Shown one piece after another: positions 26,828 through 61,110 of a stretch of 64,000 bases of DNA. The position numbers and the translations under genes are program-made. Numbering within the stretch: the first letter of the stretch is position 1; the number at the start of each line of letters is the position of its first letter. This DNA comes from Tomocerus qinae (taxonomy: Eukaryota > Arthropoda > Collembola > Entomobryomorpha > Tomoceridae), in NCBI GenBank assembly GCA_020055645.1, contig CM034546.1, positions 67,332,001-67,396,000 on the forward strand. The letters run 5' to 3'. Under the pieces are notes generated by a model. It was not told where the DNA came from, did no database searches, and worked only from the letters and a program-made list of their open reading frames with translations.

Positions 26828-26830
26828 CCA

Positions 26831-26869: not shown

Positions 26870-26922
26870 AAACAAAACTCGAACACCGTATACGAATTAA
26901 AAATTTTTGATTTTATTTCAAT

Positions 26923-29370: not shown

Positions 29371-29436
29371 GTTTCTAAATCTCCTGTTTTTAGTTGTTTT
29401 ATTTATATTTACCCGTTTATCTCCAATGGCAATTTC

Positions 29437-30786: not shown

Positions 30787-30936
30787 TTCGTATTAGGTGG
30801 ATCCTATGGGATGCTTTTTAGGTTTTGTGAAATATATATCTCCAAATCTCAAGTAATTAATCAATAATGAAAAACTTGAGATTAAACAAAACTCGAACAC
30901 CGTATACGAATTAAAAATTTTTGATTTTATTTCAAT

Positions 30937-30982
30937 TATTTGCAGCGACCGGTTTCGAAAATTCTTCGTCAGGCTGAAATAT
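30937..30982 (-). ncRNA. type I hammerhead ribozyme motif, copy B
   Basis: Identical in core to the copy A motif, 4014 bp away. In this tandem arrangement it sits between the two RT genes, at the position where it would cut the copy B-copy A cotranscript. Confidence 0.75.
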
Positions 30983-31392
30983 ACAATGTTATAGTTAGAT
31001 ACAACAGTCATTTTAGATCAAGTCAGATATTATATATATTATTTAAAAAATTATTATTATTATTTAGTTACATTTTGTCAGTATGAAATTTAATTTCTAA
31101 ATATGAGATTAAATTTAAAGTATTATTTAAATTCAGTAAATATTAATAATTACTTATATAGTAAAGCCATTGGAGATTTACCTGTAAATTAAATTTATGT
31201 AGTATAACAACTTCAGATTAATATTTAATATAAAATTTTTGTACTTCCAATTTTTATAATTTAGTTGTGTTATACATGCGGATCAGATTTTAAATATTTC
31301 CGCTAAATTGGCCAAAAATGCATGTTAAGTAGTATTCACATAGTTTAGACTGAAAACTAGACAACATAGTGTAATGCTTACATGTAGGCTAT

Positions 31393-33385: not shown

Positions 33386-33452
33386 GTTTCTAAATCTCCT
33401 GTTTTTTAGTTGTTTTATTTATATTTACCCGTTTATCTCCAATGGCAATTTC

Positions 33453-33835
33453 CTAGTCGAGTTTTGATAGCTTTCTAGTCAACGGTTCGATTTTTTGATT
33501 ACTGTTCGTGTCTGCATCAGATTGCACTTTTATGGACTTGCTGGCTGTTCCGACGGCTGATTGTGATGACGTGTTTTTGATTGTAAAGTTTCTTTTTGGG
33601 CGAGATAAAGTAGAATTCCTATCATCTGATTGAGTTGATTCGGGATGTGTATTTTCATTTCTGTATCTTTTCCAGTGGAATGTCCTTTTTACAGCGTCTT
33701 GATTGTAATATTCAACAGGTTTAAATGAGCTTGTTTCTTTCCTCTGAAAATATCTAGGTTTCGATTTTCTTATTGGCGTATTGTGTCCTGAATTAAATAG
33801 TTGTTTAAAGGGGTTATTTATATCATCATGACGAC
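33453..33835 (-). pseudogene. ORF1 C-terminal fragment of copy B
   Basis: Keeps the R/K/S/T-rich C-terminal part of ORF1. The open frame continues rightward into target DNA, which gives a chimeric N-terminus of no meaning. Confidence 0.85.
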
Positions 33836-34758
33836 CTACTGATGCATAATCGAAGACAATAGGGATTGATTTTTGTACCATTGAAAGGCATTACGGTTTT
33901 GACTCTACTTTACAACCTGCGTTGCCAACTCTCTGGCCACGACCCATTTCTTATACATTCCGTTAACGCTTGCTTCTTATTTATCGTGCTGTGTTTAAGT
34001 CATAAAAACAAAATCTGTAGAAATCCGGAAAAATGGTTTTTGTGCTCTATTCATCCAAAAAAATGCTAATGTCTTGCAGCAGCTACTAAATTCCCGCAGC
34101 CATAGTCAGTAATACAGTTATCCTTTAGAGTAAAGTTATCTACTTCTGTGAATAATACTTACAAAAATGTTTTACTGCTTATCTGAAAAAAGTCATTTCA
34201 TAGTAAAATATTCAGTCACAACCAACTTATACATACTACATTCATACTGCATTTCAGTTAACTTTTTTATAACATATTTCAGTAAACTAATCTCGAATTA
34301 TTAAGCGCAGAAAATCTTTTCAGTAAGACGGTTTCCAAATGAATCTATCCAACTAGCTGCGCTTCGGTAGTAAATGCTTTCTTGACAAAGACAATCTTGT
34401 TTTTCGCTCGAAATTCGAACAAGCTTGGCTTTAACATGTAGCCAAGAATAGAATGTATATATATTGTATCCTTGGTCGTCTGCTATACCTATAGTCACAT
34501 TTTTAGTCTTTTTTTAGCAATGGCACTCTTCGATTACATAACTTTTTATAGGTCCAACTATATCATAACCATACATATTCTATCCGATTCAATTGTCAAA
34601 AGTTATGTAATTGAGAAGTACGTTGCTATAACGGTGGCACAAATTTTAAAATGATTTAAAAAAATTAAAACTACGAATTTTTCAAAATTGGTTTATAAGC
34701 TAAAATAGTGGCTTATACACCTAAAAATTTTATTAAGTAATAAAAACATGAATTTTCT
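33834..34758. repeat. 925-bp direct duplication, right copy
   Basis: Counterpart of 25903-26827. Its right end (gaattttct) passes directly into unique flank taagcag, while the left copy passes into the element. This fixes the duplicated segment to within about 3 bp at each end. Confidence 0.9.
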
Positions 34759-40652: not shown

Positions 40653-43600
40653 TTACAATGAAGTCTCAGCAATATTTTTCGGTGCCACTTCTTCATTTTT
40701 TTCATAGACATCCTATAAACATGCATCAAAAATTAAACAGTTAAAAACCTCTACTAGAAAAACTAATGATGTAATAGAAAAACCTACTTTCAAATGATTT
40801 TGCATAAGTGAGTATAGTGATTCCACAACCATTTCTGGATTGGGTCGCTCGGCTGGATTGATGTTCCAACACTCTACCAAAACATTGTATCTAAAATACA
40901 AATACACTTTTATTATGAGGTAATATTTGTCCTCAGAGGCATAAACTTCTTTGGGCTGCCACTACTGACTCTCATTATTGGCCACCGTATTAACATTTTA
41001 TAGAAAAGTCAATAGAAGTAACAGTAATATTTACAGAGATTGTGGTGCATATTTTGGCTTTGGTAATCTCATGTTTTGTTCTAGAGCTTCAACGAAATCG
41101 GAATTGAAAGTCAATGCTGGATATGGAGTTGCTCCAAAAGAAAATAATTCCCAAATTGTGATACCAAAAGACCAAACATCTGATTGAATCGAAAATTTCA
41201 TATCATGGAGTGATTCGATAGCCATCCAACGCCAAGGGATGCGTTTCTGCAATAAGTATTTGCTTCAAATAATATATTAATTTCCTCTTAAAACCCTTCA
41301 GCCAAAATACGAATAGAGAGCTTGGGAAAAGTCACAATCACAATTAATGGTTTTAATTATAATAACAATATATTATTATGTTTTATGTTCCTGGAAAATA
41401 AAGAAAATCAAAATTTTGTAATTTAGTAAGAAGAATGCAAGCATACAGAAAATGTCAGTGCGTCCGCAAGTCCACATTTGTTAATATAAAATCTGTTAAA
41501 GCGGGCAGCGCTTCGTGCTGCCTGTCCGTTTTTATAAAATTACGACGCGCTGAGCGGGCAGCGCTTAGCGCTGCCTGCCCTGTAACTGATTTTTTTCCTG
41601 CCTAGTAACGAGGTTACCGTAAAATTACATTTTCTGTATGCCTGGGTGAATGAGTAATAAACCATTGCAAAACGGATATAACACAGAAAAGTTTATATTT
41701 TTGACGTAAGGGGTATTAGTAACCTATTTAGCAGTGTCCCAGAACCCTTTTGCTGTCTAACAAGCTATTGCATGACTTTGTGCGATTAGGGCATCCAGTC
41801 TCGGGTAGTTTTGGCCAGTCCCGGGAAATGAGACTTCCCGGGAATTTCCCGGGAAATTCCCGAGACTGAAGAAATCCTACATTTAGCTCTAAAAATTTCC
41901 AAGTTTTTATTTAAAAATAGTGAATATTTTATTTATTTTAATGCCGTCAACAAAACTTGGATTAAAATTTTTATTGCAATAATGTGACTAGCCTTTAATG
42001 CAATAAATTTCAATTTATACCTATGAATTTATTCCAGAGACGAAAAAAGAAGTCTCACTTATCCAGCTGGTTCTGTTGGCGTGTTGTACACTTTAAATGA
42101 CATTTCAGAACCACGACTAGGCACATCCTAAATACACTACGGCTACCAACGACGGCACACTATCTAATACTAATCGTATTAGATAGTATTGTATTTGTTA
42201 GATTATTAATCATTAGATAAAAATTATTATGTCGTGTGGGTAGATTACTGATAGAAATGCCATTGGAAGTTATAATGTTTCTGCTCCTCTTGGATTAAAT
42301 ATCAAACTAATATTTAAATTAATAGCTAACATATGAGACTTTGATCATTATCAAGAGGTTTTAGAAATTCTTTTTTATGCCATTTTTATCGATGTCAAAT
42401 AAGATTTCATTGGCAGGGTTTGTCTACGTGATGCAGTCAGTATTTTCTCGGATTCAAAGATATATTCAAAGGTAGGATATTAGGGGGTCCTTTTCAAATT
42501 TTCACTCTGCTTTTGAGTCATTTAAATTTGCTAAAAATTAAATGGCTTTCAATATTTGTAATTGACTGGCAAGGTAAACCTACAATTTGATGGAACGGAC
42601 TAGCTCTCTAGTTTAGTAAGTAAACCCTAAATGGAAAATTGTGTTATAAGACATAATTAACTATTTCAATAAAGGTTTGACAAACAATAAATGAAAATAA
42701 TATTGCTAGAGTAGAAACATAAGTTACTAATAATATCTTTCACACCCACATGCTAATAGTCTGTAGCGTAAAAATTTTCAAAACCAATTTTTATAAAAAA
42801 TGTTGTTCTCTAAAATGTTTTAATTTTCGAGAATTTCTCGAGACTGTCTGTTTCAGTCTCGGGAAATAAGTCTCGAGACTCTCGGGAATTCCCGAGACTG
42901 ATTTCCCGGGACTGGATGCTCTATGTGCGATGAATAGAACTGAAGTTACATCGATTTTCAATTATTTTTAAGTTTTCACGCACACCCTATCAAGGGAAGG
43001 TTTTAACCTTTTAAGTAGTGTCAGCGGACCTGTTAGCTTTCAATCAAGCTATTGCACGACTTTGTTTGATGAATAGAGTAAAACGGAAGTTACATTGATT
43101 TTTAGCAATTTTTAAACTTTAAACCTCTCCCCCGGTGAGGGGGTCTGACCGTTTTTGCTCATTTTTGAACTTGGCCTTCCTATTTAGCAATATAGATTGT
43201 ACCCTGAAAATTGAAAACAATCTATCTCAAACCGTTCGAAAATTATCGTGCACTGGGATATCCAGACAGACAGAAACAGTATTCGCATACAGAGAAGATA
43301 AAATTTTCTGAATAATTGCTCAATTACACTAAAACGTGTACCTACACTACATTTTTATACTCTACAAATTATTGATTTGGGTTACCTCATTCTTCTCCGC
43401 ATATATTTTATCATAGAGTTTTATGGAAAATCCAAAATCAGATATTTTTACTGTGTCCATATCATAAAGTAAAACATTTCGGGCAGCTAAATCTCCGTGA
43501 ACTAACTGAAAAATAAAAAAGTTGGCTTAGTATACATTATACTATATAGCACAATTATGGGTGATAATTAAAAGTGCACATATTATTATTATTCCTTTTG

Positions 43601-46600
43601 GTTCTCAACGATTAAAATTTTAATTTCTAAAATTCTATTTTGCCAGAAGAAGAAATCGAGTTTAATTATGTAATATAGACTGCCCAAAAACTTCCTAATG
43701 TTTTGAAATCTTCTCAAATACAATATTGTTCCGTATAACTTCCTTTCACCTTAGATTTCGGTTTTGACTGAAATAGTGATTATATGTACTTCGTTGAAGT
43801 GACCTGTTTGCCGTTACGAGTCAAATATCGTCAAATGGCTACTTCCGAAACTTCATTAGGTTATTTTGTAAATCAATTAATTTTCGTTGACAACAAAAAT
43901 TTTGTATGTGTACGTTTAGTTCTTGCCATTTAGTTAAATTGTTATCATACATTGCAGTATCTACTTACCTTTTTAGAACTTAAATGACATAAACCTACTG
44001 CAATTTGATGTGACCAATTAAAAAGGTAAGCCAAAGGCACTGCGCCTCCAGTAGTAGCTCTATTTAGTATGAAATCCAAAAAATTAACCCTTATAAATAA
44101 AATAAATTACGACGACTCATGGAAAGGCAAAAATACATGTACACTTAATACAGCATGTATGTACCATAACATCATGGTTGTATGCACATAGAAGGTACAG
44201 GAATTGACAACATCATAGGGTTGGATGAGGTCATGAGAAACATGTTGCAAAATTAACACAGTAAACGACACAAACATCAAACAAATTCAAATAGTAAAGC
44301 CTAATTTATATTACGCGTAATCACCAAATCATTATCACTTAAAAATATTTCATATATATTTAAGGCTAAGCTTATTTGTTTAAAAGCACTTCCACAAAAT
44401 ATAAAGCACCAAATTCGTAAAGTACAGTAGGTTTTAATTGACAGGCTTATTCATTAAATTTGCCTGTGAATTTTTATTAAGTCGACCATCACTCAACAGT
44501 AGATAATTACTCTGGTTTTGAAGTTTTTTCAAACCTTTCATCTCCGCTATTAGATAATTCTTCTTTAGATTTCTTCAAAAAGTCTTTTAGATTTCCTAAT
44601 GGACATAATTCGACAAAGACGTACACAATGCCTGTAAAATATAACACATCTGCCTGTAAATCGCAGCTTAAAAAGTATTTACATCTTAAAATATAAATTT
44701 TGGTTTAATGAGTTAACAAATTCAGGTTAGTAATAATTACCTTTTTTCAGTTCAGCAGTGGCAGCCCCAACTAGATTTACAATATTGGGATGTTTACCAA
44801 TATAAATTAGAATCTTCAATTCTGAAAGTAAGGATTTCAAATATTGTTTATCAGCTCCAAGCTTTGTCGTCTTAACAGCCACATCCACCTCGTTGACTCT
44901 TCCACCGTAAACCATACCAAATTCACCATAGCCAAGTATATTTGTTTTATCTATAACGAATAATAAGAAATAATATTCATTACCGATATATAGCATTTAA
45001 TTAGCCACTTACAGGTGTATCCGATTTATTGTACTATGAACCCCTGAACTAATGTAAAAATTTTGAATATCTCAAGGTGCAACTAATGTAATCTGAAAAA
45101 ATTAAGCTAAATTAAGGCAGGTTAATAGCTTAGCCAAAATGCAAAAAGCGCATCTTTCTTTTCGACATTGTTTGTTGTCAAGATTAGTTAAAAACATTTC
45201 TCAGAATTTTTAAAGCTATTTGGTCAACATAGGATATTTCCGACACAAGTTGTCTTTTCCTTACCGATTTTGTATTCGTCAGTGGAAAGTTCGTAGGATT
45301 CATCGTAAGGTTCGTTAACTGGGTCTATGTCTTCAGAATCCTTCTCCGTGTTTGGCTTTCCCATCTTGAATTCATTATGTTCAATTTTGTTTAACCCAAC
45401 CTGTGATTAATTATTTCATCAACTTATGGTATAATTGTTAAATGCTCACGACATTCTTAATTTCAAATGAATTATATATTTTCCATTCACATGGAGGGCA
45501 TCAAAACAAAAAAAAATGTGAAACTGAACTGTGACATTTCACAAATCAATGCTAGAAAAGTTATATGGTAGAATTTAAAATGACATTGACTTGTTGACAT
45601 TTAGATATAATTTTTTCCATAATATTGCGTATGATTTAATTTTAACGGTATGCTATCGTTTCAAATATACAAAAGTAATAACTTATATAAAAATAATTGT
45701 ATTTGTTACGTGCATTTTTCTTCCTTCGGATCAGTATAATAGAAAATACGAAAGAATTTAATATTATTATGGCTAGTATTATAATAAAAATAATCCAAGC
45801 AGTAGACATTTGGGCTTCAATCACTGGAAACATTAAAAAAATAATTACAGTAATTTTTACGAATATTAAGACAAAATAGTGAAAATAAAGATAATTACTA
45901 ACTTTGAATTTTGAATGCTTTCTCCTCAGTTGCGGATTCGTTAAAGTTAGATACCCGACAGGCAAAATTTTCACTAGAAGTAACAGGGTTGATTTTTAAT
46001 GTTGAAATTAGCAATTGTGTATTGCAATGAGTTAGTATTTCAACAGTCGATATCTTCACACTATCCCCATCATTAAGTTGAACATTTCCCTGAGACGTCA
46101 AAATAAATTGATATTATGCTCCATAAAAAATAAAATAATTAATTACATGGAAAAAATTTCCTTCCGGAAAAAGACCGTACCTTCATCCAAGTCAATTCAA
46201 GCGGACCAATTCCTTCAACTGTGCAATTTATTTCTGCTGATTCGCCTTCGGCGACTTTTAATGAGGTTGAACTGAGTAATAATACCGGTTTGTATTTTCT
46301 ACTCAATTCATCTCCAACGTCGCTTACAAATGGAATGCAATATTTAGAACGCCATTTAGTTTTGGCTTTAGTAAGTAAATAATTGATTGTTCTCAGTATA
46401 GGATATGTAAAATTTGAACAGCCGCCGGAGAAATCATCAAAATTAAGTGAATATGCCGCAATTCCTCTCAGATTTAGTTGGTTAACTAATATGATTTTCT
46501 CTCGTATACTTCTCTCATTTTCAAAGCTGTGCCAAATGTTGCGTTTAAGAAATGGTACATTTGCAACTACATGCCAATACATTTTCCACTCATTTTTCGT

Positions 46601-49600
46601 TTGAAGAATATCGGAACAAACCTGTGGTTGGTACAATTAATATACGCATTATTATTTAATTATTATAGAAAAGACCTGCCAAGAGAAACCAACTACCATG
46701 AAAATATTGAACTACTAGGAACTGTAATTTTAAGACCGTCGGCTTCCCTTATTAGGACAACGGCCATGTAAATAATAATATTATTGAGACGGGTTTGCCG
46801 TGTCGTTTCAGTGATACATTCCATCTCTAATATTGAGATACGGAGTGTTTTATATTATCTCACAAAGGAAGAAGTCTCTGGACCAATTTCATTGATATAA
46901 TATCCGATATGGGTCGAAATTGACTCTTACCCAAGGAACAAAAAAGCAATGCCTTTTTTAAGGGGGCCAGGGCCCCCCCCCCAAATAAATCGAAGAAAAG
47001 AAAAGAATTTTTGCCTTAAAACCAAAAAGTTTTGCAAAAATAGTATATATTTTCACTATAATTTGTCGGGCCCCCCCGAAAATTTTTTTCTGGCTGCGGC
47101 CTATACGTATATCTTGTACATTGTTGTTAATCAAACGTCAGTAGTTGTTTAAATACGGTGTTAATCAAATTATTCACTGGTAAATTATTATTTGAACGGG
47201 TCCGACATATATTATGTTGGTAGCTCTTTTAACTTTTCAACAAATACTAATAAATTAAAAACATATTTCACTATGTAATTAATTCCTACCTTATTATAAC
47301 CCATGCAACCTAGCCCTCGCCATGAGTTTTCAACTACCTTGGAATTAGTTTTATGATTGTAAGTAGACAAAAATACTTCAGTGTTTGCACCACCGTGAAG
47401 TATAAAGTTTGGGTCACAGAGAGACATCGATAAGACAAGATTTTGTGGGCTTATTTGATATTCAGTGAACAAAATCTCAAAATTGCCGTAAATACTGTCA
47501 TCATTGCTCTCTTTTGAAGTCATCGAACCATTATATTGACCAAATGGCATTAATCTTTCAGGATGTGTAAGTTCCCATGTCTTGACAAAAAATAAATCAA
47601 AAATTCTACTGATTTCTGCAATATTTGAATATAACCCTAGGCTTCTTTTCGAGTATATTGATATTTCTGCACCAGTCAATAGTCCTTCCTTTTTGAACTC
47701 GTCTTTTAGTTCCTAAAAACAAATTATTTATTACTACTTAAAGCAAGCACGTATTTAGTAGGGGGGCGGGGGGGGCGCAGCGCCCCCCCTAAGTCTAAGA
47801 AAAAGATAATTTTTTTCTCAAAAATGGCCTAAAATTGCAAAATTTTTTCGCGCTTCGCGCGAATATGTCTTATTTTTGGTATTATTTTTGCTTCCGCCCC
47901 CCCTTGAACAAATTTCTAGATACGTGCCTGACTTAAAGTATTACGGTCATAATAGTTTCCATCTGAATATAATAATGTAAATACACAATTTATTAACTAG
48001 GTTGGGATTCACTGGATTTTAAATAAGTAATTTTGCCAGTAAATACGGATTGGACTGCACCAATTGGTGGGCAAAAGTTAAAGACCTATGAGTATTCAAT
48101 AATAGAAAAGATTGTGGAAAGTCTTTTATCCCAAAACTAACAAAAAATGAGGTTAAAAATTTCCCAAAATTCATTGGCGTAGCTATCATGAACAAATTCC
48201 AAAAATTCAACGTAGACAAAAATTATTTGATGTAGGAAAATGAAAAAAATTGGCCTTCAATGGGTATTTTTACTTACATTTATCTGTGTATACTTTAATC
48301 TTTTAACATTCCAACTTTTACAAACATGACCTTTGACCTCCTTATAGGGTCCTTGGCTGCAAAAATAAGTAGATATTTGGCCTTTATCACTTTTTAGCTC
48401 GCCTGAATGAGGCAGCTTATAGAACCGCACAGTCTATGTGCGTCTGTCCGTACGTGCGTCTGTCCGTACGTCCGTTAACACGATAACTTTTGAGCACAAT
48501 GACGGAAGTTGACCAAACTTGGCAAAAACAATGCCTATGGACGATGACGAACACTATTGATTTTGGTTAAAATCGGTCAATAGGTTGCTGAGATACCGCG
48601 CGCTCACTGTCTTCATTTTGATAGTCAAATGGAAAATTTGGCATACAATGGACATTAAAAAGTTCAACTGCGTTTCCTATAAATTGTTAAGTTGATAGTA
48701 TAGAATATTTCACTCCGCTTCTACCAAATTTAATACTTTATAATACCGTAAATAAAACCGAAAAATAACTATTAGAGGACGGAAATAGATCTATTTTGGA
48801 TTTTTATTCAAATTTATAGTCTTTAGTGATCAAAATTAATCTACTTCTTTATTATTCTATCAAAAATGTGCACACGGTCCCCTTTACTCAGGCGAGCTTC
48901 TGTTACGGCTTGTTGTAGGTTTTAGCTTGAGAATGATACCCCACATCGACATTTTTTGACGTAAAATAAAATTTGACCTCTGACATCTCGTAGAGGTCAG
49001 CAATTTTGAAACATATTTTTGTCCTATAAACCATAACTTTTTAAGGGTTTTATTTTTAATTGGGCAGAACTTTGACGAAACGATTCTTTATACGAAAAAC
49101 TGTCTATTTTGAAATTTGTCATAATTTTGAAAAGGAAGAAATTCAAATATTTCACAAATTCAAAAAACACCCCACGAGTTTACTTTTGTTTTAAATTTCA
49201 TCCAAATCGTCCCCGTAGTTTCGGAGTTTGTTTTTTTTTGGTATCATTTCACAGCCACATCACAACTGAAATACTGAAAAATGAATTTTTTTGACCAAAG
49301 ATGTTAGTTTATAAGATTAAAGTACACCGATAAATGTAAGTAGAAATGTCCACCGAAGACCAATTTTTTTTCATTTTCCTATATCAAGTAATTTCTGTCC
49401 GTAATGATCACTACTATTAGATAAACGGCAAAAGTCAGTCACGTGACAATTCCGTTTGTATGTTTGTACTTCCGTGTGTTGATTTGCCGTAATTCTAAAC
49501 CGCAGCCAAGCACATAATAACGCACATAATGAGGCAAATTCCAACACGTCCAAAGCAGAACAATTGGTGGCACTACACAATTATGCACTGCGCGGTCTAT

Positions 49601-52600
49601 AGTCTCCTATATACGACTTACAAGGCACAAAAAATTTCATAACAGGAACAATGCATGCATTCTGTATAAAAAAATTTCCAGCTTTCAGTGCGCTCAGGGT
49701 TTCTATTACTTCATGTGCGGGAAAATTCAATTTGGCCATTTGCATTGATGTTTGGAATTTTGAATTGGTTTATTAAAAGTTAGATTCCCAAAAAAAGTCA
49801 GTTTTCGATTCCGTAAAGCAAATTTTGCATAAGGCAGTGATGCAGATTTCAAGACTGTTTTTGCCACAAATAGGAACGCTGCTAGGTAACCAGCAAAAAT
49901 TGTCATAGAGGGTAAATGGGAATCGCGAAAATTCGTACTTTTTTGGGAAAGTCCTAAAGGATCTGAGATTATGGTCCTACACCCATGTAGTAAATGTCAA
50001 ATGTAAAAAAGATTCTTCAAAACTTATTCTAGAGGTTATACTTGAAAACTTCACATTTTTGTCTCTGGCTTGAAGATATCATCGTTTGAACTTGAAATTG
50101 ATACTTATTAGGATCGAAGCTTTGCTTAGTATCCTTATGAATTTGTCGCCGTCACTCTGTCCGATCGTCCGATCGTCCGATCGTCCGATCGTCCACTATT
50201 GGTATAAGTGCGTATATCTTTGTAACGACATAACTTATTTCAAATCTGTTTTTTGCACATGGTAGCATATATATTCAGGAGCAACCAGTTATCATTAAAA
50301 TTCAAATTCGATGCATCCCCTGGTTTGTGGAAATTAAAACATGCAGCAAGTGAGGCAGACAGTAATAGTACGGCAGGGGAGACAGACAGCGTAGTAGCAT
50401 AGAGGACTGTGAATGAGCTGAGCTATCTAAGAGACTACACACCGCGCTGGTATTAACATGCTCTGAAACTGCGGGAGACAAATGTAATATAAAATAGCTT
50501 CTCTTTAGTGCAACGATTAGTTGAATACAATTTTCGTTTCATTGCAACAATATTGTCACTGCATTGTAACCCAAAACTGAAAATTGGCTAAAGAAGAGGA
50601 TTTTTGTCCATTGTGATTAGTGTTTCATTGCAACAATATTGTCACTGCATTGTAATCCAAAAGTGAAAATTGGCTAAAGAAGATTTTTGTCCATTGTGAT
50701 TAGTTAAATACAGTTTGAAACATTTTATCGTAAAAATTGTCAAAATATAAGAGTTTGAAACATTTTAACGTAAAAATTGTCAAAATATAATGGAAATGGT
50801 TGTCCATCTTCACTTCATTATGAATACATGTGTGGGATTCATCATTGGTGAGTGCAGTTAACTACAATTATCTCAAATCACTATTTAGTATTGTTTAAAT
50901 CACAATACTACATTCAATTTGTATTGGAATCCAAAAAATTATTAATCGGGTATAATCCCAATCGTGATACTCGATTCTTTCCAGCTTTACAGTCACTTGG
51001 TGCGGAATTGATTGAGTTCTGCATGTTGACTCCAAACTTATATGAATACTCTAATACCAATACCATCAACTCCCGCTCAGACTGTTGGACCAAAGACTCT
51101 CCAACTATAACCCTAGATTTTAAACATTTTATCGTGGAATCTACAAAATCGACAAGATATCACTATTTAGCTTGGTGTTAATTGACTCCTGAAGGGTGGA
51201 TATTCATGACTACCAGCAGTTTGATCTGGGACAGGAATGGGATTCCGGAATGGGACTAATTCAAAAGAAAGTCCCATATAAAATTTCAAACTATTTTATA
51301 GGACTTTCTCTACAGAACCCAGCTGATACGGGCAGGGGAAGGAGGGAGGAAGAGGCGGGAATCTGTCTATTTGCCTTGATTCTAATGATAACTGATTGTG
51401 GCTGAATACATGTGCTACCATATGCAAAAAGCAGATTTAAAAAAAGTTAGGTCGTTCCAAAATATGCGTGCATTTTATTATCGAAGGACAACCAGACCAT
51501 CAGAATTTTTTTTAAATCTCCCGCTTCGATCCTGCGTATACGCCTGTTGCCAACAGTTTATTTCTGACTATTTCTGTATTTGGATTTTGTGATCCGTGTG
51601 TCTTCCAATCAAAGACAAAATTGTGAAATTTTTAAAATATAACCTCTAGAATAAGTTCCGATGAATCTTTATTGAATTTACTTTATGGGTGTTGGATCAG
51701 TAATCTCGGATCCTTTAGCACTTTCCCAAAAAAAGTTAATGAGGAATATGACAGTCAAGAGATCATTTACGTTTGTATGCACCAGGACTTTAAGCTCCCG
51801 GTACCTCAGATTTGGAAATCTCTGATGATCATCAAAATATATGTAAAAATTGATTTACAACTCTTGGAATTCTGTCTAAAGTTCTTACCCGATTTTCTTG
51901 TGAGGTCAATTTTTGGAATCCTGAATGTAATTTCGACCATCACAATGTATAAAACATACGATATATATACATTAATGGTATAATAGTATCTCAATGAGTT
52001 ACTCCAATAGTCAAAAAATATTCAAAAATTTCATCTTACTACTACCTAGGGTCAATAGACATCGAAAAAATTTTAAATTCCAGTGTTACAGGCCCCGCCC
52101 ACTGGCTAATTTCAACACTTTAGCTCCGCCAATTAGCCACGCCCCCGAATGGATCGTGACATTCTATTGGCTGAGAACACTTAAACTCCTCCTACTTTGG
52201 GGGCGGGGCGGGAGCCAATTTCCACAGCAACCATGCAGATTTCAATAAGTTGCAAGAGATTTTCGGTTCCTGAGTCAATATGGTTGTATTAAAATAGCAT
52301 AATATTACTATCGGTAACATACCCTGGCCAGTGGCCACCCACTAGAGTCACATTTTTAACCTGGGGTATAAGGTAACGTTACTTTGAGAGGGGCGCTGCA
52401 CCCCCTCCCCCCCACTGGACACGTCCAAGCACGCACTCACGTTCAAATTTTCTCTTTTCGAGTACAGGAGTAGAGAACAAAACCCACAGCAAGCTATAAC
52501 AGAAGCTCGCCTAACTAAAGGCGACCATGTGCACATTTTTGGTAGATTGATAGTAGAAATAGAATTGATTACCAAGCACGTATCCAGTAGGGGGTGGAGG

Positions 52601-55600
52601 GGGGGCGCAGGGCCGCAGCCAGAAAAAAATTTCGGGAGGGGCACCGAGAAAAAAATATACTAATTTTTGCGCGAAGCGCGAAAATTTTTGCGATTTTAGA
52701 CAAAAATTCGGGGGGGAGCACGTGCCACGGTGCCCCCCCCCCTCACTGCGGCCCTAGGGGGCGCAGCGCCCCCTAAATCTGAGAAAAAGAGGATTTTTTC
52801 CAAAAATTGAAAAAATTTTCGCGAAAATATGTCTTATTTTTTAACATCATTTTTGGTTGCGCCCCCCTCCCTTGACCAAATTTCTAGATACGTATCTGTT
52901 GATTACTAAATTCTACAGTAATTCAAATTAGATCAATATTGATCATAAATCATAATTGACTATCAAAATCAATAAGTTTTAAAATAAGTTGTATTTGACT
53001 ATTCGAGCTAAAATTACAATATAAAACACTCCATTTCCTAATTAATCGCTTGACGCTACATTGCTAATTAAGGCTAACTCGGCCTTAAAATGGTTCATTG
53101 TCCAGTGATGGCAGAATGTATAATGGCGATTAAAAGTAACCGAGTCAAAAATGTGGTGGGTAACCGGAGTAATTTTCCAATAGCCAAATTCTCTTTCTAA
53201 ACAAAAGGTTGACCCTAGGCCGTAGGCCCTGGCCCACATAATGAGAAGGCATGAAAAGGTCAATTGGAATTAAGACAAAATCTATGTATCTGAAATACAT
53301 TCTACCGATCATTTTTGTACGATGGCCATCGTACAAAAAATATACAGGAATACACACTAGCTTTATTTATAACGGGTCCTGTGACTGGTACATTATATTA
53401 GTGATGAACCCAATTGAATGCCGGTGTAATTGGCCTACTAGAAACCATAATTCTTACAAAATTGTTTGTAGATGCACTAGCCCCATATACTACAGGACCT
53501 GGGTCCTGTGACCGCCTTATTAGTGATGAACCCAATTGAATGCCGGTGTAATTGGCCTACTACTAGGAACAAAAAAGCAATGCCTTTTTTACTAAAAAGG
53601 TAAAAAGTTACCTTTTTTTAAAAAAAGGTACCATTTTACCTTTTTTGCTTTTTGCTTTTTCACCTATTCATAAAGATGCAGCCAGTCTAAAACAGTACTG
53701 TATTTAGAAATCGATTTCGGTGGGGGCTATGATATCATAGGACAATATCTATTAGGCATAATCGCGCGAAGCGCGAAAATTTTTGGCTTATTTTGTCTAA
53801 AATGAGTCAAAAATAGCCTAAAAATCACATAAAATCGCGCGAAGCGCGAAATTTTTTGGTATTTTGAAAAAAACTTTCCTTTTTTCTTGGATTTCGGGGG
53901 GGGCTTTAGCCCCCAAAGCCCACCCCCTCAATACAGCCTTGGTCTAAAACTACTACGCAAACTAATCAAATATAAAACATTTATAGCGTAATATTTTAAA
54001 TCAATAGAACACTAATCTAGAAATATCGGACTACAAAATAAGGCACTTCATTTATTTTTTATTGCAACTTTTAACAACGTAAAAAAGCAAAAAGGTAACC
54101 TTTTTTACAATTTTGCACTTACCTTTTTTACACAAAGGCAAAACAAAGGAAAAAGCAATAAAAGGTCTTTTTTTTTGTTCCTTGGCCTACTAGAAACCAT
54201 AATTCTTGCAAAATTGTTTGTAGATACACTAGCCCCATGTACTACAGGACCTGGGTCCTGTGACCGCCTAGTAAACAATAAATACCGACCGCAATAAAAC
54301 GCAAAGCATGAAGACTAGTACCTAATACAATCTTAAGCCCTAGTAAAACCATACACTATGAAATTATTTTTGAATAAAGATTTTTCAGCTTTAAATTAGT
54401 TTAGAATTAAATAAATTCATTTTTGCGTTACATACAGAAACTATTCATACTTTACTACTGCCTTTTTTACTTTCCATTATACTCACGCCTAAAAGGTTTT
54501 ATTTTCACTGGTACAATTACTTCTCTAAAACCCAATAATATATAACCATTAGCCATTTATCAAATAAGTTTTAATTTTTACTTGTGCTAAAGTAGTAAAT
54601 GTTCGAGGAGATAAAATATATATTCGATCGTCGAGAATTATTCCGTCCAAATGTAACTGTCTATATCCCCCATAATATAATTAAAATATTCAAATTTAGT
54701 GACATTAATTATTAATGTAATTTGGGAAAAGAAGATACTACCTTATTGTGCTCTTTAATTGAAACACAAATTTTTGACGCATTTCGCTAGAAAATATTAA
54801 GTCCTCAAGCAGTGGCGGTACTTTTTTCAGATTCGTTTCCATTTTAAGGCTAGCCAAAATTATTAAATGTGGATACATTCTCTTAATCAAACTGAATTTT
54901 TTAATTTCATCTGCACATAAAGAAAGAAAATTAAAGTGCATCGCATATCTTACACAAATACGTCCAATGAAAGTGTAGTAAACCTTTCATTTCATTATAC
55001 TACTATTTATTTAATATTTAAAGTTCTAGAATTATAAATTTGACTTTTACTGAAATTGTCGTTTTCAATGATCCTGAATGTGGCTGACAGTTCAATAGAA
55101 GCTAATACAAGATGGGTACAAAGATTTCCGTCGAAATTAAATGTCGTATTGGGCGCATCAAATTTATATTTATTACCGATTTGTGAGAAAGGCAAATGGA
55201 TGTAACAAGTAACAATATAATTGTGCTCTTTGGAAGCTAAAAGAAAATTAATTGATTAAATAACAATATTTTGTTGCAAACTGAACTGTAAACATAAAAT
55301 TATTAGCTTTGAAGGTTAAATTTGCTGTTTGTACAGAAATTAGTTTTGCCACAATACAGTCTGTATGCGTCTTTATTAATACATCTTACTTGAAAATTTA
55401 GCTTTTTTTGGGGCTTCAATCTCCAAAGGAACTTCTTGAACCAATTCTGCTTCTAAATAAAGTCAATGGGTTAAAACTTATAAAACTTATGCTAAAAATA
55501 TAAATAAGGTCATAATATAATTGAATGTCGTATAATTTGTTGATCTGTGGACTGTAGAGGGATTGATGAATCAAGATGGATATTGATGAGTATTCTATTA

Positions 55601-58600
55601 TGAAGTATGCATAAACCAAATACTGTTTACATCGAAAGGAATATATAGAACTCAGATTTTATATCAAAATTGTGAACAAAAATTAACGAGCCATGGGCAC
55701 AAAGTTTTGCCATTTTTGTCAAAAATCAAATCTAGCTTGGCATTCACAATTCTAACAAACTCGACACGAAAATTGAATAAAAAGTTATTTCTGAGAAATA
55801 TAAGTATTACGAATGGTACAGTATATATATGCTTTTTAAAAGGGATTTTCAGCAATTCAGCACCACCTAATGGTTATTTCAACAGAGCTCATGGGTTCAA
55901 AGTAATACGTCATTGCAAGCAAGTATAGTTTTGGACCATATTGTTTCATGATCAAAAATTGGGCATTTTACAAAGAAATTATGAAAGAAAACATGACATT
56001 TTAAAATCTTCCGGAGTCTGTAAAATGAGGACAAAGTGGAATATCGTAAAAAACTACTTCACTTTTCAGTTGATCTCATGCAGAGTACATTTTATCTTTT
56101 TTTGCAATTTTTTAAATTGACGAATTAATTTAAAGGACTCAAGGAATTATAAAAGTCACAATTTTTATGTAAATGTCAAAACTTTAAATTTTTTCGCGCA
56201 TGAAAATATGATCTTTTCAAGGTACCCGATGAAGACCGGACTGTTTAAAATGCAAATCAATATAGAACTTAACATGGTGGTCCCTTTTGCATGTATGTTC
56301 CCACACAATTGTTTTGTGAATAACTCACTTAATTTGGGATCAATTTGGACATAATAATGTGGGCAGTGTTCCATTTTATCCGACAAAAAATTATTTTGAC
56401 CAGCCAGCCGGTTAAAGTGGTTGAAATGGCTAGTGGCCAAAATGGCCAGAAATCATGGTTTTTTAAATTTCCCGCCAATTCAACGATGATTTCTCAGTTC
56501 ATATAGCTCCATTTGACTATTTGTGATCACTTCAGCCATTTTAGCCACTGGCTAACAAAGAATTTAACCAGCCGGCCATTATAGCCAACCATTTTAATCA
56601 ACCGAACACTGCATATATTGCATTATTATGAAGATATGCTAACCAGTTCGGACATGTCATGGTATATTTTACAATTTTGGAAATTTACAATTTTACAAAA
56701 GGAATTTGTAATTTGAATTTGCAAAATTTGTCAGGTAGCTGGTAGCGGCAAGGAGCGGGACAGAAAGAAAATGCCCAAGAAAACTACAAATCAGTAAAAT
56801 GTAAAAACTGTTTTGGCGAAGCTTAATATGCCCCCTCAGTTCAGCCAAAATTTTTACATTTTGTGTTGTCCTGGCTCCGATTGATAAATTATAGTATGGT
56901 CCTTTAATTAAGGGATAAAATAACTACCTTAAGCTAAATATTTACTTACCTTCGATGTTGAAATCTATCTCCATAGTTTCATTTAAGTATGATATCTGAC
57001 AGCAAAAAATGTTACCATTGCTTAATGTAGCATTTTTGAGCTTTAATGTTGATATAAGGAATTGTATTCCACAGTGAGTTGGTAGTTCAACGTTCCTTAT
57101 ATCTACATTTTCTCCTTTTGCAATTGGTATTTTTTTCCTCCCATATTTCTAAAACAAAATAATTTTTTGCATCTCTGAAAGCTCGGAATTTATTTTATTT
57201 TAACCTAGGCATCAATACCCATATGAATTAGGCATTAGGTATTGGTTAATTTAGCCGAAATTGGGCCTTACCCTTAACCAAGTCAATTCAAATGGGCCAA
57301 ATCCTTCAACTGTACAATTTATCTCTGCTGACTTTCCTTTGGCGAATTTTAAAGAGTTGGAACTGAGTAACAGTATTGGTTTGTATTTTCTACGCAAGTC
57401 GTCCCTTTTGTCATCGATGAAAGGTATACAGTGTTTAGAGCTCGTGGACTTAGTAGTATTACTTAGTACGTTATTGACTGTTTTGAGAAGAGGATATGAC
57501 AAATTTGAACAGCCACCAGTAAAATCGTCAGCATTCATTGCAAATACAGCAATTCCTCTAAGGCCTAATTGGTTTACTAAAGAAGTCTTCTCCCGCACAC
57601 TCTTCTCATTTTCAAAAGCAATAGCGAAGGTGTCAAATTTTAGAAATGCTACTTTGGCCACATCGTCCCAAACCATTTTCCATGCATTTTTATTAGGGAG
57701 GTATTTTGAGCAAATCTAATTTTTAAAATAAAGAATTGATATTTGTGTTTTGTTTGATGAACCATAGCACCAGTATATGTGGTGGTAATTTGGAAATCGT
57801 TTTTAAATAAATAAATTGTTTCGAATTCTTACAATTATGGATGTGATATGCACATGCAGTGAATACCATTTATCAAATCCATATTTGTACTATTATGTAA
57901 TTTTTTGAATTTTTGTTAAAGCAGCAATATTATATTGAAGGCTTTATCAGCTTATAAATACACATTTCATACATTTTATAAATGGAGTTTAGCAAAATCT
58001 AATATTAATTATCATTGTGAAACAGATAATTATAAAGAAAAGCGTATATTCTGGGAGGATTTGCATTTTCGAATGCAACCGTTGTAAACCCTAAATGTAA
58101 ATTTTAAAATGTAGTTAATTGTTTACCTCGTTTTAACCCAAGCGAGCTAACCAATATGCTTGAATCGTTAGTTGATCAGTTTCTTCTTTGAAACCCAACG
58201 GTAACTCGGTTGTGTTTGCTTGGTTCAATTGAAAACCTTGACCAAAGATAGAAACTGACAGGACTAGATTGCGTGGGTTAATTTGGTATTTAGTGAACAA
58301 AATCTCAAGATTTCCGTAAATACTCTGAATATTTGTTTCGTTAGAATATATAGGAGCATTATATCGACCAAAGGCAATGTTGTCTTGGTCATAATTAAAC
58401 TGCCACGTTCTTACGAAAATTAAATCGAAAATCCTGCTAACTTCTCTAATATAGGGATATTCGCCTAGTTCAAAGTGGTTAGATAATGATATTTCTGCGC
58501 CAATGAGCAATCCCTCTTTTTGAAACTCTTCTTTTAGTTCCTATTAAAAATATCAATATAATCCCACGATAAGCCTCATAACTATAGATATCCACCTCTG

Positions 58601-61110
58601 AATTCTAATACTGCGGAGAATTAACATTAAAATAATGAACAAGGCTTACTAGTGCAAATATGGGAAATTTGTTGGGAGAAAAATAATATATTTCTTCGTC
58701 AAGAACAATTCCATCCATACGTAATTGCCTATCCCACACAAATAAATAGTATTTTAAATTCTCCAATTTAATGGTAATTACGTGGTTTGGAATAGTATGT
58801 ATTTATGGCATATTTTACCTTACAGTGGTCTTCAAATCTTTTATGAATTTTTGCTGATTTTCGTTGGACATTATTAATTTTGAAAGCAATAATCTTTTAT
58901 TGGGCTGTGGTTTTGCCAATTCCAAGTCAACCAAAATTATTAAATGCGGATACAGCTTCTTAATCAAACTGAATTTTTCAATTTCATCTGCATAGAAAAC
59001 AAAGTTAAAATCATTTCTGAGCACGAGTATTTCGACTCGAATAACATAGTGTGCTGTTATGTTAATAATATGTAATTCCATTGTTTTAACATTTTTTATC
59101 ACGACTACTACGACTAAATGTAAAGTTGGAAGTTGAAACTAAACATCCGAAATAATTGGAACCAAGTAAATTGTAACTAAAAGCTTTCTCGCCACAGACA
59201 TTCAAATCACCAAATAGAACCAAAAATGTTACAGATAGATTTTATTTGATACGCCTTATAGGTAAATGATTTTCCATCACAAAATTCCGAGATACCACTA
59301 TTTTAATCGTTCTCGTTATTTCTATCTATTTTCTGCCTACCCTGTTTCATTAAATTAGCCAATCCTATGTCAAATCAAGTCAGTCAGGTCCTCGAATTTA
59401 TTCGAAGGTCCTTGAATTTATTCGACGGTCCTCGAATTTATTCAAAGGTACTCAAAGTATTAAAAACTGTACATTACTAAGTACATTGACTTTGCTGAGC
59501 CGGAGCCAAGATCTCGGCTGAGAATAAGCTGAACCTATAAGCCAATTGGAACTGGCTGTTGGACCCGGTGGAGGTAAAACTTAAGACTCGACATACAATT
59601 ATTGCACTACCGACGACCTAATCTTATTTAAAGGGAAGTGGATACACTATACCAATTACCAATTGTTTTCTTTCCAATCTTCAAAAAAATTCAAAAAAAT
59701 GTGGATTTTTGTCTTTAAAAAATTTCTACCACAGATTTTAATGGAGAGTTTTTGCACATTGATAAGGTTTTAACCGTGCGGCTAGTATTTCTTTGCTTTT
59801 GGGCATTGTCATTTTTTAATTACAAATAATAAAATGAAATAATACCGAAAAGGTTGTTCATTATCTCGAAATCTGCAGAGAATTGAATGGCACCCAATAT
59901 GAGATGAGTACAAATATTTCCGTCGAATTGATATTTTGCTTCAGTCGCATCAAATGGCCCTTCGTCATAGATATTCGCTCCTGGTAATAGGATGTAACAG
60001 GCAACAATGTGATCATGAACTTTGGAATCTAAAAAGCCAGATTAACAATTGATTCGAATGATAAACATTTGATAGATAAAAGTTGCTAAAAATCACCAAC
60101 TGTTATATTTGCACCCGAGGCATTATTTACTCCGTGTCAGTTTTTAATCAGCCTTTGTCGGATTTTCGCATTTAGTTATAGACATGCTTCACAATTATCA
60201 ATTCTTTTATACTTATTTATCTGTTCCTAAATGCATTGCAAGTCTTGCAAGTTACATGAAGATGCTAGCTTTTTAAAAATTAAAGTTGGAAAAAAAGCAT
60301 TACCATTCAAGGGTTTTGGGGCGTCTATCACTGAAAACAAAATTTATAAATTGTTATTTGTAACATTCATTTGCATAGTCCCGTACAGAAGCCAAAGTTA
60401 TATATTTGTCAATCACTTTGAATTTTAAAATCCCTGGTAATGGATTTAGTTTTGTTCAAGTAAGATAGGCGACAGGAATACTGGCCATTTGAAGAAACAT
60501 GTGTTATTTTCAATGTTGACATTAGCAATTGTGTGGCACAGTGAGTTGGTATTTCAACCATCGATATCTCCACATTTTCCCTATTATTCATGGTTAAACT
60601 TCCGTTTCCAAATGCCTGAAACAAAAATAAATCACTTCTCTTGAAAATGATTATTGAGTTTGCTGAAGATACCATTTCAGATTAAGTAGAATACTTACAG
60701 CAGGCCTCGACGAATCATTTAAATTATGTTTAACTTGGCATCAAATAATCTCAGATTTTTAAATTTTACCTGCAACCAAGTTAGTTCAAATGGACCGAAT
60801 CCTTCAACAGTACAACTTATCTCTGCTAATTCCTTTTAGATGATCTTTAGGGAGGATGAGCTTTTCAACAGTATTGGTTTGTAGTCTCTACGTAAATCAG
60901 CACTTATGTCATCGGTAAAAGGAATGCAATAGAGTTCCATTTGGAGTTGTTGGTATTGCTTAATGCTTTTTTAATTGTTTTGAGAAGATGAAATTTCAAA
61001 GCAATATATCCGGAATTACGGGTAATTTTCGGCCTTTTAAAAAATTGTGACTGCAAACGAATATAGTGCTGAAATTTTTTGTGCTTGATGCTTACATATT
61101 TAAGCCTCAT
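40653..61110 (-). CDS. receptor tyrosine kinase locus with tandem GH18-like + Ig ectodomain modules
   Basis: A multi-exon minus-strand gene read from splice sites and homology. In transcript order: remnant module A (to 60417); linker 60330-60256; module B exons 60028-59846, 58987-58819, 58728-58650, 58540-58127, 57715-57272, 57148-56950; linker 55452-55390; module C exons 55236-55051, 54910-54742, 54660-54582, 47712-47290, 46621-46181, 46089-45903; transmembrane exon 45823-45710; juxtamembrane 45400-45265; kinase 44950-44741, 44631-44535, 44089-43969, 43505-43386, 41246-41035, 40890-40788, 40712-40653 (TAA). Junction phases agree everywhere except between the transmembrane and juxtamembrane exons, so a small exon may be missing. 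Stops in A and B show that at least part of the N-terminus is dead, and no signal-peptide exon was found. The function inferred is a chitin- or glycan-binding-type receptor kinase. Confidence 0.75.
41438..41644. mobile_element. short hAT-type element (MITE), family 1, intronic
   Basis: Ends CAAGCATACAGAAAATG and CATTTTCTGTATGCCTG; flanks gaagaatg / ggtgaatg (6/8 match). The interior has two GC-rich hairpins built on gggcagcgc. Same family as 7783-7961. It lies in a receptor kinase intron. Confidence 0.7.
41700..43130. repeat. tandem ~146-bp repeat split by the hAT element
   Basis: caagctattgc(a/g)tgactttg followed by gatgaatagar occurs once around the hAT insertion (41761-41786 continuing at 42924) and again at 43050-43085. 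Removing the element and one target copy leaves a spacing of about 146 bp. Confidence 0.6.
41787..42923. mobile_element. hAT-type element of the TAGGGCATCCAG family, intronic
   Basis: Ends TAGGGCATCCAG / CTGGATGCTCTA with cccggga/gtctcgg-rich subterminal repeats. Perfect 8-bp duplication tgtgcgat at 41779-41786 and 42924-42931. It is 1137 bp and noncoding, inside the intron between the DFG exon and the next kinase exon. Confidence 0.88.
45710..45823 (-). other. transmembrane exon
   Basis: After a tttccag acceptor the phase 1 frame reads MSTAW followed by about 24 hydrophobic residues (I/L/F/V-rich) and then the stop-transfer RRKKNAR. It directly follows the last Ig half-exon, which fixes the ectodomain/kinase order. 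Its gtaaca donor is phase 1 whereas the next exon needs phase 0. Confidence 0.85.
46932..47102. mobile_element. composite of two hAT-type element fragments
   Basis: Begins caaggaacaaaaaagc, the terminus of the element at 53563-54184, and passes into a poly-G/C block ending ctggctgcggcct. That ending is the inverted terminus of the element at 52609-52756. The other ends of both are missing or altered. Confidence 0.55.
47744..47930. mobile_element. short hAT-type element (MITE), family 2
   Basis: Ends CAAGCACGTATTTAG / CTAGATACGTGCCTG with a perfect 8-bp duplication acttaaag (47736-47743 and 47931-47938). The interior has gggggcgcagcgcccccc and cgcgcttcgcgcg palindromes. It lies just upstream of receptor exon 47712-47290. 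Confidence 0.9.
48396..48913. repeat. dispersed TIR-like repeat
   Basis: agctcgcctga (48396-48406) and tcaggcgagct (48888-48898) are perfect inverted repeats. The interior has gtccgtacg runs and gaccaaacttgg wording shared with 12313-12470 and 16260-16960. An inverted partial copy lies at 52490-52560. No clear target duplication. Confidence 0.65.
50155..50194. repeat. 8-bp tandem repeat
   Basis: Unit gatcgtcc repeated four times in a row. Confidence 0.85.
50537..50792. repeat. two adjacent tandem duplications (~84 bp and ~39 bp)
   Basis: An ~84-bp unit beginning gtttcattgcaacaatattg occurs at about 50537 and 50623. A 39-bp unit beginning gtttgaaacatttta occurs at about 50715 and 50754. Each pair differs by a few bases. 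Confidence 0.85.
52573..52898. mobile_element. hAT-type element, family 2, with nested insertion
   Basis: Ends CAAGCACGTATCCAG / CTAGATACGTATCTG with a perfect 8-bp duplication ttgattac (52565-52572 and 52899-52906). Same family as 47744-47930. Its GC-rich core is split by a second element at 52609-52756. Confidence 0.9.
52609..52756. mobile_element. nested short element, family 3
   Basis: Near-terminal inverted repeats AGGGCCGCAG / CTGCGGCCCT. Flanking gggggcgc occurs on both sides (52601-52608 and 52757-52764), an 8-bp duplication, although the G-run makes the boundary ambiguous by a base. Contains a gcgcgaagcgcg palindrome. Confidence 0.75.
53563..54184. mobile_element. hAT-type element, family 4
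   Basis: Ends CTAGGAACAAAAAAGC / ttttttttgttccttg with a perfect 8-bp duplication gcctacta (53555-53562 and 54185-54192). The interior is built of aaaaaggtaaa / tttacctttt palindromes. It carries a second element at 53693-53941. Confidence 0.88.
53693..53941. mobile_element. nested hAT-type element, family 5
   Basis: Ends CAGTACTGTATTTAG / CTCAATACAGCCTTG with a perfect 8-bp duplication gtctaaaa (53685-53692 and 53942-53949). The interior carries two copies of gcgcgaagcgcga and a gggggctttagcccccaaag palindrome. Confidence 0.9.
56390..56610. repeat. imperfect palindromic repeat in an intron
   Basis: Left wording ggctagtggccaaaatggcc and right wording cagccattttagccactggc are approximate reverse complements, with ccagccgg words at both edges. 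Probably a MITE. It lies in the intron between module B and the linker of module C. Confidence 0.5.
59389..59450. repeat. 20-bp repeat, three units
   Basis: Unit ggtcctcgaatttattcgaa three times with 1-2 changes each; a third short array with a 20-bp period in this window. Confidence 0.85.
59489..59600. repeat. dispersed repeat shared with 18672-18770
   Basis: Same core as the copy at 18672 (tttgctgagccggagccaa and ctcggctgagaataag) with an extra ~35 bp before the gacccggtgg word. Confidence 0.7.
60417..61110 (-). pseudogene. module A remnant (GH18 end + Ig), decayed
   Basis: The Ig second half (60615-60417) is open and well conserved (THCATQLLMSTLKI, YSCRLS). The preceding exon (about 61110-60770) still shows HLLKTIKKALSN, DLRRDYKPILL and ISCTVEGFGPFELTWL, but a frameshift separates the first two and a TAA interrupts just before ELAEISC. 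No beta1-beta7 exons are found upstream, where a mobile element begins at 61540. Confidence 0.75.

What the first reader, a model, noticed from the sequence alone, without database searches (positions are those of the whole stretch)
40653..55452. Receptor tyrosine kinase with a chitinase-like (GH18) plus Ig ectodomain
Splice-phase-compatible exons link a GH18-like barrel (CTHL..A, ALDLDDF.G-type beta8 wording) and an Ig domain, through a transmembrane exon, to a kinase with DLAARN, DFG and SDVWSFG. Plants have chitinase-like receptor kinases (tobacco CHRK1, Ser/Thr type). I know of no established animal tyrosine kinase receptor with a GH18-type ectodomain. It could couple chitin or glycan sensing to tyrosine signalling.
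Basis: partly seen in the sequence, partly recalled or inferred. Interest (0 to 1): 0.92.

Follow-up and report, generated by a model that had tools for sequence, protein, structure and literature searches.

The report
Chitinase-like receptor tyrosine kinase gene
An arthropod-type genome carries a gene in which chitinase-shaped modules, the last of which lacks the key catalytic residue, sit outside a growth-factor-receptor kinase, a combination for which no animal precedent was found in the searches made here, although parts of this gene copy look damaged and nothing shows yet that it is expressed.

Summary
On the minus strand 16 exons (55452-40653) spell GH18 (Pfam E=1.1e-22), one Ig domain (2.6e-8), a transmembrane segment and a tyrosine kinase (1.7e-74). 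One uncut frame (46621-46181) holds the GH18 end and the Ig start, so that link needs no splicing. The kinase falls among pancrustacean PVR (PDGF/VEGF-type) receptors, on a long branch. Between modules dN/dS is 0.37 (0.28-0.48).

Against: the TM-to-juxtamembrane junction is out of phase; module 1 has a nonsense codon; the remnant has a stop and an apparent frameshift. Two 3-kb repeats in this window differ by no substitution but four one-base indels, so assembly error could explain the phase break, not the nonsense codon. Module 2 has Arg for the catalytic Glu; chitin sensing is not shown. No GH18+kinase relative was found in three protein searches. Best reading: a PVR-derived receptor whose outer Ig domains were replaced by chitinase-fold modules; living or recently decayed.

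The parts
60770..60931 (-). remnant of module 0: first half of an Ig domain (61% identical to module 2 over 54 residues), with an in-frame stop and, just upstream, an apparent frameshift (read by eye)
   Evidence: tblastn; sequence
60417..60615 (-). module 0 Ig second-half exon, open, AG/GT borders, ends phase 1
60304..60330 (-). module 1 linker exon (27 nt, phase 1-1), MIDAPKPLN
59846..60028 (-). module 1 GH18 exon A (50% identical to module 2)
58819..58987 (-). module 1 GH18 exon B
58650..58728 (-). module 1 GH18 exon C; DGIVLDEE keeps the catalytic-position Glu
58127..58540 (-). module 1 GH18 exon D; one in-frame TAA followed by two more codons before the donor
57272..57715 (-). module 1 exon E: GH18 end + Ig first half (60% identical to module 2)
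56950..57148 (-). module 1 Ig second-half exon F, ends phase 1
55390..55452 (-). module 2 linker exon (63 nt, phase 1-1)
55051..55236 (-). module 2 GH18 exon A (CTHLVLA strand)
54742..54910 (-). module 2 GH18 exon B
54582..54660 (-). module 2 GH18 exon C: LDGIILDDR in place of FDGLDVDWE of OfChtIV (catalytic Glu to Arg)
47290..47712 (-). module 2 GH18 exon D
46181..46621 (-). module 2 exon E: GH18 C-terminal part and Ig first half in one uncut frame
45903..46089 (-). module 2 Ig second-half exon F
45710..45823 (-). transmembrane exon (IIFIIILAIIILNSFVFSII, then RRKK), ends phase 1
45265..45400 (-). juxtamembrane exon with PVR-type PYD motif; starts phase 0 (does not fit the TM exon), ends phase 1
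44741..44950 (-). kinase exon: GYGEFG loop, VAVK, SELKIL
44511..44631 (-). kinase exon (hinge, start of a short kinase insert)
43969..44089 (-). kinase exon (end of insert, following helix)
43386..43505 (-). kinase exon: HGDLAARN, DFG, activation-loop Tyr
41035..41246 (-). kinase exon: SDVWSFG
40788..40890 (-). kinase exon: C-lobe end
40653..40712 (-). last exon, short C-tail, TAA stop

Best explanation
A gene of a pancrustacean animal (inferred from the kinase tree) encodes a receptor tyrosine kinase of PVR (PDGF/VEGF receptor) descent. Its membrane-proximal Ig domain, TM, juxtamembrane region and kinase are kept, but the outer Ig domains have been replaced by chitinase-fold (GH18) domains; the GH18-Ig unit, a phase 1-1 exon cassette, was then duplicated, giving [GH18-Ig]n-TM-kinase with at least two, probably three units. 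Shown: domains, order, strand, open frames, constraint between modules, Arg for the catalytic Glu in module 2. Inferred: one transcript; that the GH18 barrels act as a non-enzymatic ligand-binding scaffold (for a glycan or a protein) in place of the ligand-binding Ig domains; that ligand clusters the receptor and the kinase phosphorylates its activation-loop and juxtamembrane tyrosines to drive PVR-type signalling, with few docking sites because C-tail and kinase insert are short. This copy may be intact apart from assembly errors and splice choice, or recently damaged.
For: GH18, Ig and kinase profiles above cut-off; GH18 aligns over its length with OfChtIV (E 4.7e-22); GH18 end and Ig in one uncut frame 46621-46181; 14 of 15 junctions phase-compatible; 0 internal stops in 16 exons versus 64 and 89 in the other frames; second module with GH18 91.1 bits, in phase with module 2; dN/dS 0.37, 95% CI 0.28-0.48 over 485 codons, 0 of 2000 bootstraps at 1 or more; kinase inside the VEGFR/PDGFR/PVR set (100/99), sister to an Armadillidium-labelled PVR (96/89), then Manduca PVR (98/94); HGD instead of HRD shared with these two and with none of the other 8 receptors checked; juxtamembrane sequence aligns with PVRs directly after the TM; Ig scores best against the membrane-proximal Ig in 6 of 8 receptors with printed tables, weakly.
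Against: TM exon ends phase 1 but the juxtamembrane exon needs phase 0. Module 1 has an in-frame TAA, module 0 a stop and an apparent frameshift. The Ig domain of module 1 stays below the Ig_3 cut-off (20.9 versus 30 bits). No signal-peptide exon found between modules 1 and 2, and three poor candidates further upstream. No relative with GH18 + kinase found, within the limits of the tool. The kinase branch is very long (2.08), which can mean relaxed constraint and makes its place unsure. The flanking 925-bp repeat pair shows 2 substitutions and no indel, so the error gauge rests on one 3-kb pair. No RNA evidence; the rest of the genome was not seen.
Confidence: 0.6

Rival explanations
1. Pseudogene: such a fused receptor existed in this lineage, but this copy no longer makes a working protein; the upstream modules are decaying and the TM/juxtamembrane frame is broken.
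For: Nonsense codon in module 1; stop and apparent frameshift in module 0; out-of-phase TM/juxtamembrane junction; long kinase branch.
Against: About 913 codons of module 2 + kinase without internal stop, splice borders all AG/GT; kinase signature residues kept (VAVK, SELK, HGDLAARN, DFG, DVWSFG); two 3-kb repeat copies differ by 0 substitutions and 4 one-base gaps, three in A/T runs, and a run of five A (45719-45715) lies at the end of the TM exon, so an assembly error is possible there; frame-keeping alternatives exist (exon skip; 38- or 44-nt microexons).
Confidence: 0.25
2. Two neighbouring genes: a membrane-anchored GH18-Ig protein (or array) and a separate, ectodomain-poor PVR-like kinase.
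For: Phase break exactly between the TM exon and the kinase exons.
Against: Same strand, 309 bases between the TM exon and the juxtamembrane exon; the TM exon ends with a stop-transfer RRKK and the next exon aligns with the PVR juxtamembrane region directly after the TM; Ig most like the membrane-proximal Ig of VEGFR/PVR (weak). I did not scan specifically for a start exon of a separate kinase gene.
Confidence: 0.1
3. Sub-case of the best explanation (its odds overlap with it): module 2 alone, with its own start, is the working receptor, and modules 0 and 1 are dead copies upstream.
For: Damage is confined to modules 0 and 1 apart from the TM/juxtamembrane phase.
Against: No start exon with a signal peptide and phase-1 donor found between 56949 and 55453 even at relaxed limits of a simple script; the linker exon before module 2 is in phase with the Ig exon of module 1.
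Confidence: 0.2

Closest known systems
Arthropod PVR (PDGF/VEGF receptor-related), e.g. Manduca P0003 and Armadillidium-labelled P0001
   Same: Kinase clade, HGDLAARN and PYD juxtamembrane motif, membrane-proximal Ig (weak), single TM
   Different: Drosophila Pvr has seven Ig repeats and a split kinase (PMC6982143, passages); here GH18 modules stand outside the last Ig; kinase insert 27 residues against 157 and 90
Tobacco CHRK1
   Same: Chitinase-like ectodomain lacking the catalytic Glu, linked to a kinase (PMC10573068, passages)
   Different: Plant receptor-like kinase of Ser/Thr type (type recalled); class V chitinase type; no Ig (recalled); independent origin (inferred)
Imaginal disc growth factors and chitolectins (CHI3L1 type)
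   Same: GH18 fold with the catalytic Glu replaced (PMC1945033, passages)
   Different: Secreted, without Ig, TM or kinase (recalled); module 2 is closer in sequence to OfChtIV (81 bits) than to IDGF-2 (48 bits)

Membership tests
GH18 fold | Pfam Glyco_hydro_18 above curated cut-off | tested here: met
   81.5 bits (module 2), 91.1 bits (module 1, stop as X); cut-off 29.6
Active GH18 chitinase | DxxDxDxE with catalytic Glu | tested here: not met
   Module 2 DGIILDDR: Glu is Arg, middle Asp is Ile. Module 1 DGIVLDEE keeps Glu but lacks the middle Asp
Active GH18 chitinase | Other groove residues of OfChtIV: GGW (strand 3), MTYD (strand 6), LWS (strand 8) | tested here: not met
   Aligned letters: module 2 KME, KTWE, AYS; module 1 ELA, RTWQ, VFA. 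Tyr to Trp on strand 6 and Trp to Tyr or Phe on strand 8 keep an aromatic, so sugar binding is not excluded. Strand numbers recalled
PVR/VEGFR-PDGFR receptor kinase | Kinase domain inside the clade | tested here: met
   Tree of 33 rows (32 of 121 fetched proteins, chosen by me, + query): set of 10 at 100/99, pair with P0001 at 96/89; query branch long
PVR/VEGFR-PDGFR receptor kinase | Seven (or five) Ig repeats as ectodomain | tested here: not met
   One Ig per GH18 module; tblastn with the module's Ig exons found no further Ig exon in the window; no separate Ig profile scan of the whole window was made, and the 5' end is outside
PVR/VEGFR-PDGFR receptor kinase | Long split-kinase insert | tested here: not met
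   27 residues versus 157 (P0001), 90 (P0003), 62 (P0006)
CHRK1-type receptor-like kinase | Ser/Thr receptor-like kinase domain | tested here: not met
   Groups with receptor tyrosine kinases of the VEGFR/PDGFR/PVR kind
Working receptor tyrosine kinase | Catalytic residues kept | tested here: met
   VAVK, SELKIL, HGDLAARN, DFG, DVWSFG present
Working receptor tyrosine kinase | Single transcript, expression, kinase activity | not testable with these tools
   No RNA data; TM/juxtamembrane phase break unresolved

The most novel reading that the evidence does not exclude
A living animal receptor tyrosine kinase whose ligand-binding ectodomain is a tandem array of chitinase-fold (GH18)-Ig modules, made by swapping the outer Ig array of a PVR/VEGF-type receptor; an independently arisen animal counterpart of tobacco CHRK1, with the GH18 fold re-used as a ligand sensor.
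Probability: 0.45. Interest if true: 0.88.

Novelty: new variant of a known kind. Interest (0 to 1): 0.72.

Why it matters
Receptors of the PDGF/VEGF kind are known as Ig-array receptors for cystine-knot growth factors. A member with chitinase barrels outside would show that the ligand-binding part can be exchanged wholesale, and would give a concrete test of the idea that chitinase-like proteins (IDGF, CHI3L1 type) act through kinase signalling: here scaffold and kinase would be one molecule. It would also be a second, independent GH18-kinase fusion besides the plant CHRK1.

Tried and rejected
Microexon bridging TM and juxtamembrane exons: four frame-fitting candidates among lengths under 100 nt; the 11-nt one leaves a 28-base intron, the 5-nt one has a weak acceptor and donor; the 38- and 44-nt ones are possible but unsupported. 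A direct TM-to-kinase splice (skipping the juxtamembrane exon) is in frame, but drops a stretch conserved in PVRs.

Signal-peptide/start exon for module 2 or further upstream: none at strict limits; at relaxed limits none in 56949-55453 and three poor ones in 64000-60332. The script is a simple hydropathy and donor filter.

Relatives: one search gave 147 proteins, of which 120 were listed; none of these 120 has PF00704 in its Pfam list (27 not seen). One search gave 1 hit among 7111 candidates, a Cimex chitinase-like protein; one search gave none among 220 candidates at E up to 10. Of the 121 proteins so fetched only the Cimex one matches the GH18 part by BLASTP (E up to 1). These searches use at most 100 words and a length filter (about 500-1600 aa), so distant or longer relatives, and short secreted ones, can be missed. 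IMG/VR and GTDB contigs: none.

Chance explanation (random frames): rejected by profile E-values, frame control and dN/dS. The idea that HGD marks kinase decay: rejected, the Manduca and Armadillidium-labelled PVRs have it.

Full report
What is there. On the minus strand of the window, 16 exons between 55452 and 40653 with AG/GT borders give open reading frames. hmmscan of the spliced peptides finds Glyco_hydro_18 (residues 53-368, E=1.1e-22), Ig_3 and I-set (both E=2.6e-8) and PK_Tyr_Ser-Thr (E=1.7e-74), above the curated cut-offs; Ig_2 stays below its own. A 20-residue segment IIFIIILAIIILNSFVFSII (mean hydropathy 3.09) followed by RRKK is the TM. By sequence the nearest solved GH18 structures are those of OfChtIV (E 4e-22), and well behind IDGF-2 and chitotriosidase; the nearest solved kinases, leaving aside a double-length EGFR construct at the top of the list, are VEGFR2, PDGFRA, KIT and their kin.

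How solid the coding claim is. In the chosen frame there is no internal stop in any of the 16 exons, while the same exons read in the other two frames hold 64 and 89 stops. Fourteen of fifteen junctions are phase-compatible; I picked the borders by eye to fit frames, so this is weaker than it sounds. The GH18 end (RGIAAYSLNFDDFSGGCSN) and the start of the Ig domain lie in one uncut frame (46621-46181), so that fusion needs no splice model.

tblastn of the exon peptides against the window shows a second GH18-Ig module upstream (exons 60028-56950, 52% identical over 485 codons), with the same six-exon layout and its own Pfam GH18 hit of 91.1 bits; its Ig domain reaches only 20.9 bits, below the cut-off of 30. 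A remnant of a third lies at 60931-60417. Linker exons of 27 and 63 nt, both phase 1-1, join Ig to the next GH18, and module 1 reads into module 2 in phase. So the array is [GH18-Ig]n followed by TM and kinase. The first exon was not found and may lie outside the window. dN/dS between modules 1 and 2 is 0.37 (bootstrap 95% 0.28-0.48, 0 of 2000 at or above 1): the copies spent their separate history mostly under protein constraint.

Problems. (1) The TM exon ends in phase 1; the juxtamembrane exon is open only in phase 0. Alignment to PVRs puts the juxtamembrane exon directly after the TM, so a slip of one base is the simplest reading. (2) Module 1 carries one in-frame TAA near the end of its exon D; the module 0 remnant has a stop and, read by eye, a frameshift. 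(3) The assembly may make indels: two 3-kb repeat copies (26825-29819 and 30839-33835) differ by 0 substitutions and 4 one-base gaps, three in A/T runs of four to six and one C against CC, and a run of five A lies at the end of the TM exon. The neighbouring 925-bp pair shows 2 substitutions and no gap, so this gauge is small. It can explain problem 1 and perhaps the frameshift of module 0, not the nonsense codons. I therefore hold a living gene and a recent relic both open.

Descent. In a tree of 33 kinases (32 of 121 fetched proteins, chosen to span receptor families, plus the query) the window kinase sits inside the VEGFR/PDGFR/PVR set (100/99), sister to P0001 (labelled Armadillidium vulgare, and UNVERIFIED_CONTAM, by its source) at 96/89, then Manduca PVR at 98/94; its branch is long (2.08), so the exact place is unsure. 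It shares HGD in place of HRD with these two and with none of the other eight receptors checked. The Ig domain scores best against the Ig nearest the membrane in P0001, P0002, P0003, P0004, P0006 and P0009, not in P0007 and P0019 (the table of P0011 was cut off); best scores in the six are weak, 1.3 to 13.7 bits. Simplest history (inferred): a PVR paralogue lost its outer Ig domains and gained a GH18 domain by exon shuffling, and the GH18-Ig cassette was duplicated. That the genome is pancrustacean is inferred from this kinase alone.

How it may work. The kinase keeps VAVK, SELK, HGDLAARN, DFG, DVWSFG and activation-loop tyrosines, so activity is plausible. The GH18 barrel keeps cysteines in strand 1, CTHL, VCSD/ICSK and GGCS in both modules; their pairing as in chitinases is recalled. 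Module 2 has Arg for the catalytic Glu, Ile for the middle Asp and KME for GGW; module 1 keeps the Glu but has Val and ELA at the other two. On strands 6 and 8 Tyr has become Trp, and Trp has become Tyr or Phe, so aromatic character is kept and sugar binding is not excluded. Glu, an Asp and a Tyr form the catalytic set of a plant GH18 protein (PMC12355970, passages). So the barrel of module 2 is most likely a binding scaffold, for a glycan or a protein, not an enzyme. The kinase insert (27 residues versus 157, 90 and 62) and the C-tail are short, which suggests few docking sites or work as a partner of a full-length PVR (inference).

Comparison with what is known. Drosophila Pvr has seven Ig repeats and a split kinase (PMC6982143, passages). 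Tobacco CHRK1 is a chitinase-like receptor kinase without the catalytic Glu (PMC10573068, passages); a legume survey lists Glyco_hydro_18 among additional domains of RLK/RLP proteins (PMC7333395, one passage). IDGF and CHI3L1 lack the Glu (PMC1945033, passages); that they are free secreted proteins is recalled. Full-text searches of open-access papers for an animal GH18 receptor tyrosine kinase gave: one paper, whose passages describe none, no paper, four papers, of which I opened one and saw the others in the listing only. Subscription papers are not held. No GH18 + kinase protein was found in three protein searches, whose limits are told under Tried and rejected.

Verdict. The domain combination is real at DNA level up to the TM, and very likely up to the kinase; it is a new ectodomain on a known kind of receptor kinase; function and integrity of this copy are open.

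Noticed in passing
window 725-4498 (-): 1258-codon single frame with URGCP-like GTPase domains (PF25683 E=1.2e-65).
   Followed up: partly
window 25903-34758: Two near-identical direct copies of a 3-kb element with a weak reverse transcriptase match (RVT_1 E=0.0012, below cut-off), differing by no substitution but four one-base indels; a 925-bp block with 2 substitutions lies at the outer side of each copy. Used as a gauge of assembly error.
   Followed up: partly
window 20995-22797 (+): DDE_Tnp_4 transposase-like frame of 601 codons.
   Followed up: no
window 5260-6013 and 11482-12172: Two arrays of different 20-bp repeats with about 38 and 35 copies.
   Followed up: no
window 58728-58650 versus 54660-54582: The catalytic-position Glu is kept in module 1 (DGIVLDEE) but is Arg in module 2 (DGIILDDR), so the modules may have differed in function.
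   Followed up: partly
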